A DNA stretch of 64,000 bases. It comes from Acidobacteriota bacterium (GTDB lineage Bacteria > Acidobacteriota > Terriglobia > Acidiferrales > UBA7541). The stretch's first letter is position 1, and each line of letters begins with the position of its first letter. The position numbers and the translations under genes are program-made. The stretch spans positions 62,001-126,000 of the forward strand of contig QHYK01000043.1 in NCBI GenBank assembly GCA_003224085.1, written 5' to 3'. This document shows positions 26,770-27,380 of the stretch, in pieces. The notes beneath the pieces were generated by a model. That model searched no databases. It was not told the origin of the DNA and saw nothing but the letters and a program-made list of their open reading frames with translations.

Positions 26770-26922
26770 CTAGTCTTCCCAGTCCATGTAGCCGGGAAGC
26801 GTGTCATTATAGGTGACAGAGGTTTCCGAAAGCAGCGTCACGTACGACTTGCTTATGGATTTGGATTGTATAGCATCGATGGCGGGGGGAAGTGGGAGCA
26901 GTTCGGGAGCTTCGTACTTCAT
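26770..26922 (-). CDS. Lasso-like precursor peptide A1: MKYEAPELLPLPPAIDAIQSKSISKSYVTLLSETSVTYNDTLPGYMDWED
   Basis: Manual translation; SD AAAAAGGAGGTTAAGACAAATG; YxxPxL leader motif; paralogous to A2/A3; not in the supplied ORF track (below length cutoff). Confidence 0.85.
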   Translation of the reverse strand: MKYEAPELLPLPPAIDAIQSKSISKSYVTLLSETSVTYNDTLPGYMDWED

Positions 26923-26960
26923 TTGTCTTAACCTCCTTTTTAGGCGAGAATAGAACTGCC

Positions 26961-26986
26961 GGAGAGCCCGGTGAAGCGGACTCTCC
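26961..26986 (-). promoter_or_regulatory. Intercistronic hairpin between A2 and A1
   Basis: GGAGAGCCCG-GTGAAG-CGGACTCTCC, with the single deviation a G.U wobble in minus-strand RNA; no following T-run. Confidence 0.6.
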
Positions 26987-26998
26987 GGCAGGGACTAC

Positions 26999-27151
26999 TT
27001 ACTCTTCCCAGTCAAGGTAACCGGGAACAGTGTCGTTCTTGTTGATGGCGCCGTCCGACGCGAAAGTCACCATCGTCTTGCTATGAGACTGCGACTGAAT
27101 TGCGTTGATCGCAGGGGTCAAGGCAACCAGTTCTGGAGTTTCGTATTTCAT
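26999..27151 (-). CDS. Lasso-like precursor peptide A2: MKYETPELVALTPAINAIQSQSHSKTMVTFASDGAINKNDTVPGYLDWEE
   Basis: Manual translation; SD AAAAAGGAGGTGAACACAATG; 229 bp from A1 and from A3. Confidence 0.87.
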   Translation of the reverse strand: MKYETPELVALTPAINAIQSQSHSKTMVTFASDGAINKNDTVPGYLDWEE

Positions 27152-27188
27152 TGTGTTCACCTCCTTTTTTTAAGAGAATGGCACTGCT

Positions 27189-27214
27189 GGAGAGCCCGGT
27201 GAAGCGGGCTCTCC
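27189..27214 (-). promoter_or_regulatory. Intercistronic hairpin between A3 and A2
   Basis: GGAGAGCCCG-GTGAAG-CGGGCTCTCC perfect 10-bp stem; no following T-run. Confidence 0.6.
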
Positions 27215-27227
27215 GGTACTGCACGAC

Positions 27228-27380
27228 TTAGTCTTCCCAGTCAATGTAACCGGGAGCCGTGTCGTTGTGGCTGATCGCGCCGTCCGACGGGAAGGTCACG
27301 GCCCGCTTGCTATGAGACTGCGACTGAATTGCGTTGATCGCAGGGGTCAAGGCAACCAGTTCTGGCGTTTCGTATTTCAT
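27228..27380 (-). CDS. Lasso-like precursor peptide A3: MKYETPELVALTPAINAIQSQSHSKRAVTFPSDGAISHNDTAPGYIDWED
   Basis: Manual translation; SD AAAAGGAGGTGAAAACAAATG; first 25 aa identical to A2. Confidence 0.87.
   Translation of the reverse strand: MKYETPELVALTPAINAIQSQSHSKRAVTFPSDGAISHNDTAPGYIDWED

What the first reader, a model, noticed from the sequence alone, without database searches (positions are those of the whole stretch)
26770..27380. Three unannotated tandem precursor-peptide genes on an exact 229-bp period
Manual translation of the minus strand gives three 50-aa peptides, each with a strong AGGAGGT site. CDS starts and stops are spaced exactly 229 bp apart. All carry KYE[A/T]PEL, matching the YxxPxL leader motif read by lasso B1/RRE proteins, and all end NDT[L/V/A]PGY[M/L/I]DWE[D/E]. 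They fall below the ORF cutoff and would be missed by a default annotation.
Basis: seen in the sequence. Interest (0 to 1): 0.9.

Follow-up and report, generated by a model that had tools for sequence, protein, structure and literature searches.

The report
Lasso-type peptide genes with twin cyclases
A soil acidobacterium carries three tandem genes for small peptides that are almost certainly made into knotted 'lasso' molecules, but their predicted ring starts at an invariant lysine and the cluster keeps two ring-closing enzymes instead of one, which is a combination I could not find described.

Summary
Three 50-codon ORFs lie on the minus strand, 229 bp apart, each with AGGAGGT. They are real genes: the family has 686 homologues, recurs in the same synteny in 7 of 36 genomes of the genus, and its leader is under purifying selection. 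The neighbourhood is a lasso-peptide cluster of the isopeptidase class: B2 protease, B1/RRE, AtxE2-like isopeptidase, TonB-type receptor, ECF sigma.

Several features go beyond the finding. (1) In 73 of 82 non-redundant homologues a Lys is followed at +7/+8 by Asp/Glu (shuffles: mean 9.7). Single-cyclase sister families fix the same Lys (44 of 45). Only counting that Lys as core residue 1 keeps all rings at 7-9 residues; Lys has not been reported there. (2) All eight loci with these precursors have two cyclases, C1 and C2, from one duplication. Two loci pair both with a single precursor. (3) The dual-cyclase family gained a second near-invariant acid (56/57), absent from the sisters (0/45). 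(4) An RRE-GT47 glycosyltransferase fusion and further GTs are linked. The exact period is incidental, and the peptides are not generally missed by gene callers. Chemistry is untested.

The parts
27228..27380 (-). precursor A1, MKYETPELVALTPAINAIQSQSHSK-RAVTFPSDGAISHNDTAPGYIDWED; predicted ring Lys25 to Asp33
26999..27151 (-). precursor A2; predicted ring Lys25 to Asp33
26770..26922 (-). precursor A3; predicted ring Lys25 to Glu33
26956..26991 (-). intergenic hairpin A2/A3, 15 pairs, followed by a weak T-rich tail; terminator/attenuator-like
   Evidence: z -7.8; found only here and at 27189-27216 in the genome
27186..27216 (-). intergenic hairpin A1/A2, same repeat; no run of T
   Evidence: (z -4.8)
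27507..29516 (-). C2, second asparagine-synthetase-like cyclase (669 aa); SGGLDS kept, second motif TGEM where C1 has GGDE
29573..31495 (-). C1, cyclase (640 aa from MSVQFGRWNFDG); SGGRDS and GGDE. The listed ORF begins upstream at 31651, but the conserved start is 31495
31542..31913 (-). B2 leader protease (NF033537, 76 bits, cut-off 33); the Cys, His and Asp expected of the family can be read in the sequence
32311..33228 (-). glycosyltransferase GT8b
33279..34226 (-). glycosyltransferase GT8a
34298..35389 (-). glycosyltransferase GT4a
35629..35901 (+). B1, stand-alone PqqD/RRE protein, 90 aa; the 160-aa minus-strand ORF 35379-35861 is largely its antisense
35922..37205 (+). RRE (residues 1-82) fused to a GT47/exostosin-like glycosyltransferase
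37261..38997 (+). glycosyltransferase GT4b
24310..26754 (+). AtxE2-like lasso isopeptidase (S9), convergent with the precursors; catalytic Ser of GLSGFS aligns with that of AtxE2
20898..24176 (+). TonB-dependent-receptor-like outer membrane protein with CarboxypepD_reg domain
18483..19169 (+). ECF sigma factor
19172..20506 (+). conserved partner of the sigma factor, probably the anti-sigma factor (no Pfam match)
   Evidence: by position

Best explanation
The three ORFs encode precursors of isopeptidase-class lasso-type peptides. B1 (RRE) reads the Y3-x-x-P6-x-L8 leader and B2 removes the leader just before a conserved Lys (Lys25), so that Lys becomes core residue 1. C1 adenylates the Asp/Glu at core position 9 and joins it to the Lys amine, giving a 26-residue product with a 9-residue ring. 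The rest of the core, ending in the conserved GYxDWE with bulky Tyr and Trp, forms the tail. C2, a retained and diverged duplicate, acts on the same precursor, either as a partner subunit of C1 or on the second conserved acid (Asp40 of NDT). Linked glycosyltransferases, one of them tethered to an RRE, probably decorate the peptide. The product is exported, taken up again through the TonB-type receptor, linearised by the isopeptidase, and the sigma pair adjusts expression. Shown here: genes, synteny, motifs, duplication. Inferred: cleavage site, ring, threading, sugar, transport.
For: B2 NF033537 76 bits against a cut-off of 33; both cyclases have NF033535 (lasso cyclase) as best hit, 257 and 267 bits, and lack the N-terminal Cys of glutamine-dependent enzymes. 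B1 PF05402, and the RRE part of the fusion matches TbiB1 bound to its leader, TMt 0.78. Isopeptidase: NF033523 E=3e-38, AtxE2 7e-22. The whole set is syntenic in 7 genomes. Lys followed by D/E at +7/+8 in 73/82 homologues against 9.7 in shuffles, maximum 22. In single-cyclase sisters Lys to D/E gives rings of 7 or 8 in 44/45 if Lys is residue 1, shuffle maximum 15; with Lys at -1 most would have 6-residue rings, outside the seven-to-nine range (PMC7549694). C1 and C2 form sister clades, 100/98, inside single-cyclase lineages. In the genus, adjacent cyclase pairs occur only at the loci with these precursors. Two loci, G007:C44 and G025:C7, have both cyclases and one precursor.
Against: C1, C2 and the isopeptidase score below the curated NCBIfam cut-offs (525, 525, 400), so they are distant members. 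No Thr at -2, and Lys is not among the position-1 residues reported as observed (Gly, Cys, Ser, Ala, then Asn; PMC12670498). A Lys at -1 is known from memory in microcin J25. No product, mass or expression data. No exporter is obvious inside the cluster.
Confidence: 0.7

Rival explanations
1. Conventional cut after Lys: Lys is residue -1 as in microcin J25, core residue 1 is the variable next residue (Arg, Thr or Ser in the window), and the ring has 8 residues (7 or 8 in the family).
For: Ring sizes 7/8 are allowed for the window family itself. A -1 Lys exists in known lasso leaders (from memory), and canonical T-K precursors occur in other acidobacterial loci (L049, L051).
Against: The same rule gives 6-residue rings in about two thirds of the sister precursors (30/45), below the known minimum. 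The residue after Lys is very variable and includes Pro, Ile, Val, Asp and Lys, unlike a ring-forming residue 1.
Confidence: 0.2
2. The nucleophile is the side-chain amine of the conserved Lys, so the ring is a Lys-Asp/Glu side-chain lactam and need not begin at a cleavage site.
For: Lys is the one fixed residue, while Thr(-2) is missing and the residues before it vary.
Against: B2 is present, and the AtxE2-like isopeptidase class acts on threaded alpha-amine lassos (PMC9266682). No precedent found among AsnB-type lasso cyclases.
Confidence: 0.12
3. C2 is not catalytic but a partner or regulatory subunit of C1, and the N[DE]xxxxYxDWE tail is its docking motif. (This refines the main explanation rather than excluding it.)
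For: C2 evolves faster and varies in the second motif (TGEM, GGSE, GGEV, GGEI; GGDE only in G008), while C1 keeps GGDE. C1 and C2 always occur together, also with a single precursor.
Against: C2 keeps SGGxDS and the late Lys of the LNRxxK region, and most members replace Asp by Glu rather than losing the acid.
Confidence: 0.4
4. The glycosyltransferases belong to an unrelated surface-polysaccharide locus and do not act on the peptide.
For: Two clusters with the same precursors and cyclases (G007:C44, G025:C7) lack GT8 and GT4a. GT8/GT4 enzymes are common in envelope loci.
Against: RRE-GT47 fusions recur (most of the 60 best hits carry PF05402), and three tandem copies lie in G025. An RRE on a GT is hard to explain without a leader-bearing substrate.
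Confidence: 0.25
5. Chance or decaying ORFs in a repeat.
For: Exact 229-bp spacing in a repeat.
Against: Hundreds of homologues, cross-species synteny, leader purifying selection.
Confidence: 0.01

Closest known systems
Isopeptidase-class lasso peptide clusters of proteobacteria (astexins, caulosegnins, benenodin, sphingopyxin; PMC9266682, PMC7549694, PMC13352647)
   Same: B1/B2/C, AtxE2-like isopeptidase, TonB-type receptor and sigma/anti-sigma genes, no linked ABC exporter; several precursors per cluster (caulosegnins I-III) are known.
   Different: Here two C proteins, isopeptidase convergent to the biosynthetic operon, B1 detached and divergent, glycosyltransferases, no Gly1 and no Thr(-2).
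Acidobacterial soil lasso clusters 40.1, 482.1, 44.1 (PMC9064862)
   Same: Same group of organisms; 482.1 has two 141-bp A genes beside one C and one B2. Precursors needed manual annotation.
   Different: One cyclase and no glycosyltransferase in the table of lasso genes; glycine proposed as ring residue.
Metanodin (PMC12670498)
   Same: Soil metagenomic isopeptidase-type lasso peptide with a non-classical residue 1 (Asn); A gene not called as a precursor by antiSMASH.
   Different: Thr(-2) present; Asn rather than Lys at position 1; gammaproteobacterial origin.
Pseudomycoidin (described in PMC9266682) and a report on iterative glycosylation of a mature lasso peptide (title only, cited in PMC13352647)
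   Same: Lasso peptides carrying sugars.
   Different: Pseudomycoidin: sugar added on phospho-Ser by a nucleotidyltransferase homologue. No paper with lasso peptides and exostosin together was found.
AO75L GT47 xylosyltransferase (8q8i, 8avq, 8asa)
   Same: Fold and sequence of the C-terminal part of the fusion (E=1e-7 by sequence, 1e-12 by fold).
   Different: AO75L has no RRE domain; its substrate is a sugar chain.

Membership tests
Lasso peptides | Short precursor with a YxxPxL leader in one cluster with B1, B2 and C genes | tested here: met
Lasso peptides | B2 transglutaminase-fold leader protease | tested here: met
   NF033537 76.3 bits, cut-off 33
Lasso peptides | AsnB-type macrolactam cyclase recognised as a lasso cyclase | tested here: inconclusive
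   best NCBIfam hit is NF033535 at E 5e-76 and 5e-79, but 257 and 267 bits against a cut-off of 525
Lasso peptides | Asp/Glu at position 7-9 of the core | tested here: met
   if Lys is residue 1: mostly 8 or 9 in the window family, 7 or 8 in sisters
Lasso peptides | Gly, Ala, Ser, Cys or Asn as residue 1 (usual, not strictly defining) | tested here: not met
   Lys fixed; or a variable residue if Lys is -1 (list of observed residues in PMC12670498)
Lasso peptides | Thr at -2 (usual, replaceable) | tested here: not met
   two residues before the Lys: Gly 18, Ser 14, Thr 11, Ala 8 of 73
Lasso peptides | Threaded macrolactam product | not testable with these tools
   needs expression and MS/MS or NMR
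Isopeptidase-class lasso clusters | AtxE2-type S9 isopeptidase | tested here: inconclusive
   NF033523 E=3e-38, 132 bits against a cut-off of 400; AtxE2 the best solved match, catalytic Ser aligned
Isopeptidase-class lasso clusters | TonB-dependent receptor and sigma/anti-sigma genes adjacent | tested here: met
   receptor and ECF sigma by Pfam, conserved in relatives; the anti-sigma assignment is by position only
NCBIfam lasso precursor families | match to a curated lasso precursor model | tested here: not met
   no lasso precursor model matched any of 18 members at E<=10
GT47/exostosin glycosyltransferases (RRE fusion protein) | GT47 fold and sequence similarity | tested here: met

The most novel reading that the evidence does not exclude
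A two-bond lasso-type peptide: C1 and C2 each close one amide, using the two amines of the single conserved Lys (alpha and epsilon) and two conserved acids (ring Asp/Glu at 8/9, and the acid of N[DE] five residues before the tail Tyr). The product would be bicyclic and 36 Da lighter than the linear core. The second fixed acid (56/57 precursors against 0/45 in single-cyclase sisters) appears in the same lineage as the second cyclase.
Probability: 0.14. Interest if true: 0.88.

Novelty: new variant of a known kind. Interest (0 to 1): 0.62.

Why it matters
Lasso cyclisation is thought to need one cyclase and a small residue 1, usually Gly. A whole lineage with a fixed Lys at the ring start and an obligate second cyclase would widen the rules used by genome-mining tools, which look for Gly1 and Thr(-2) and would mis-assign these cores. 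It also offers a natural system in which the division of labour between two homologous cyclases can be tested, and RRE-tethered GT47 enzymes that may be usable peptide-glycosylation tools. The precursors are numerous in soil metagenomes (686 hits).

Tried and rejected
(1) One cyclase per precursor or per ring size: rejected, because G007:C44 and G025:C7 have two cyclases and one precursor, and the three window precursors share one ring size. (2) The 229-bp period as a functional signal: rejected, spacing differs in relatives. (3) Hairpins as a genome-wide repeat element: rejected, only two copies in the genome. (4) C-terminal NDTxPGYxDWE as the core with Asn at position 1: not favoured, since it leaves the fixed Lys-Asp/Glu pair unexplained and the sister families lack it. 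(5) C2 as a dead gene: rejected, intact ORFs with SGGxDS kept at all loci where it is complete (G013's copy has masked bases). (7) Full text of the lasso glycosylation paper is not held. (8) tblastn of C2 in plasmids gave only distant AsnB proteins. (9) Paper searches for dual lasso cyclases, exostosin with lasso, and Lys1 found none; many papers are not in the library. (10) No sigma-70-like promoter was found in 26600-27700.

Full report
CHECK OF THE OBSERVATION. The three ORFs exist exactly as described: 27380-27228, 27151-26999 and 26922-26770 on the minus strand, 50 codons each, ATG start, with AGGAGGT upstream. The repeat finder gives a 159-nt unit at spacing 229, 229, with 89% and 65% identity to the middle copy. 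The spacing is the result of tandem duplication: relatives have arrays with other spacings. Between copies 1 and 3 the leader shows pS 0.91 and pN 0.16, while the presumptive ring region shows about equal pS and pN (0.43, 0.41); numbers are small. The genes are therefore coding, with a constrained leader and a freer core.

RELATIVES. In the order of the host (95 genomes) only seven genomes have homologues, all of the same genus, in arrays of one to four. In 400 genomes of the class no further full-length relative appears; two genomes have leader-only matches. Named records with the same peptides are soil Acidobacteria MAGs, several labelled gp2. The protein set holds 686 homologues, so the family is common in metagenomes, and gene callers do find many of them.

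NEIGHBOURHOOD. From the precursors upstream on the minus strand: C2, C1, B2, two GT8 and one GT4 glycosyltransferase. Divergently on the plus strand: a stand-alone B1/RRE (35629-35901, PF05402), an RRE fused to a GT47-like domain (35922-37205) and a second GT4. Convergent on the plus strand: ECF sigma, its probable anti-sigma, a TonB-type receptor and an S9 protein whose best model is the Atxe2 lasso isopeptidase, with the catalytic Ser aligned to AtxE2. The core order is kept in the relatives; GT8/GT4a and the fusion are missing in some. This is the isopeptidase-class lasso architecture described for proteobacteria (PMC9266682).

THE CORE. Between the helical leader (AIQ) and the tail, 73 of 82 non-redundant homologues have a Lys followed by Asp/Glu at +7 or +8; shuffling the same residues gives 9.7 on average and never more than 22. 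Most of the nine exceptions have the same spacing from a second Lys or a neighbouring distance, as in window A3 (SISK-SYVTLLSE). To decide whether Lys is residue -1 or residue 1, I fetched 40 further lasso B2 loci of the class and found sister precursor families with one cyclase and a C-terminal AYEADE. A search with 18 of them gave 616 homologues; in 44 of 45 non-redundant ones the Lys is followed by an acid that would close a ring of 7 (30) or 8 (14) residues with Lys as residue 1. With Lys at -1 these would be mainly 6-residue rings, while lasso rings have seven to nine residues (PMC7549694). Since leader, Lys and tail are arranged alike, I take Lys as residue 1 in both: rings of 8 or 9 in the window family. 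That differs from the residues reported as observed at this position, Gly, Cys, Ser, Ala and recently Asn (PMC12670498), and there is no fixed Thr at -2.

TWO CYCLASES. The loci with these precursors have two adjacent cyclase genes (in G014 the pair is on a separate contig from the precursors, and the palsa_253 record is cut at its end, showing only a C2). A survey of the 36 genus genomes with C2 as query found adjacent pairs only in the seven genomes that have the precursors; the other cyclase hits are single, some of them at contig ends. The tree gives C1 and C2 as sister clades with strong support inside single-cyclase lineages, so one duplication occurred within this group and both copies were kept. 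C1 always reads SGGRDS and GGDE; C2 reads SGG[LM]DS with a variable second motif (TGEM, GGSE, GGEV, GGEI, GGDE). Two loci have one precursor and both cyclases, so the copies are not precursor-specific. In the same family a second acid is fixed: N[DE] in 56 of 57 precursors, 5 residues before the Tyr in 54; in the single-cyclase sisters 0 of 45 have it. Caveat: only the genome loci prove the link of precursor and cyclase pair; the metagenomic peptides were not linked to their neighbours, and the loci are phylogenetically not independent.

GLYCOSYLTRANSFERASES. The fusion's N-terminal 82 residues match PqqD/RRE and, by fold, TbiB1 bound to a leader peptide (TMt 0.78); the rest matches AO75L, a GT47 enzyme that binds UDP-xylose (mean pLDDT 86). 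Most of the 60 best homologues carry the RRE. G025 has three in tandem. This suggests sugars added to leader-bearing or cluster-specific peptides; target and sugar are unknown.

HAIRPINS. Strong hairpins lie between A1 and A2 and between A2 and A3 (z -4.8 and -7.8); one is terminator-like. They occur nowhere else in the genome and may set relative expression of the three copies.

COMPARISON AND VERDICT. Multiple tandem precursors in isopeptidase clusters are known (caulosegnins and others), and acidobacterial lasso clusters with two A genes have been reported (PMC9064862). So the finding as given, tandem lasso precursors, is a new member of a known kind. The fixed Lys at the ring start, the obligate cyclase pair with a second fixed acid, and the RRE-GT47 fusion together make it a new variant. 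Nothing here shows the chemistry.

Noticed in passing
window 35922-37205: RRE domain fused to a GT47/exostosin-like glycosyltransferase; about 60 similar fusions among the best homologues, three tandem copies in L023 8273-12161.
   Followed up: yes
window 26956-26991 and 27186-27216: Strong intergenic RNA hairpins between the precursor genes, found nowhere else in the genome; possible attenuators.
   Followed up: partly
class-wide survey; genome G164: Lasso B2 genes occur in 137 of 400 genomes of the class; genome G164 has seven.
   Followed up: partly
L047 11793, L048 8089 and 7836, L067, L070, L072-L074, L076, L080, L082, L086-L088: A second large family of acidobacterial lasso-type precursors with fixed Lys and C-terminal AYEADE, one cyclase each, predicted 7- or 8-residue rings; no NCBIfam precursor model matches the 18 members scanned.
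   Followed up: yes
L065 10003 and 10285: Tandem precursors with K-G-[HS]-D-V-[LI]-D-V-D cores and a deeply branching cyclase; another lasso-like type.
   Followed up: no
window 40814-43183: Met-zincin-like DUF4953/DUF5117 protein beside the cluster; role unknown.
   Followed up: no
window 44712-46490: ABC transporter with fused membrane and ATPase domains about 6 kb beyond the cluster; not shown to export the peptide.
   Followed up: no
window 9509-13117: Large protein kinase with TPR repeats.
   Followed up: no
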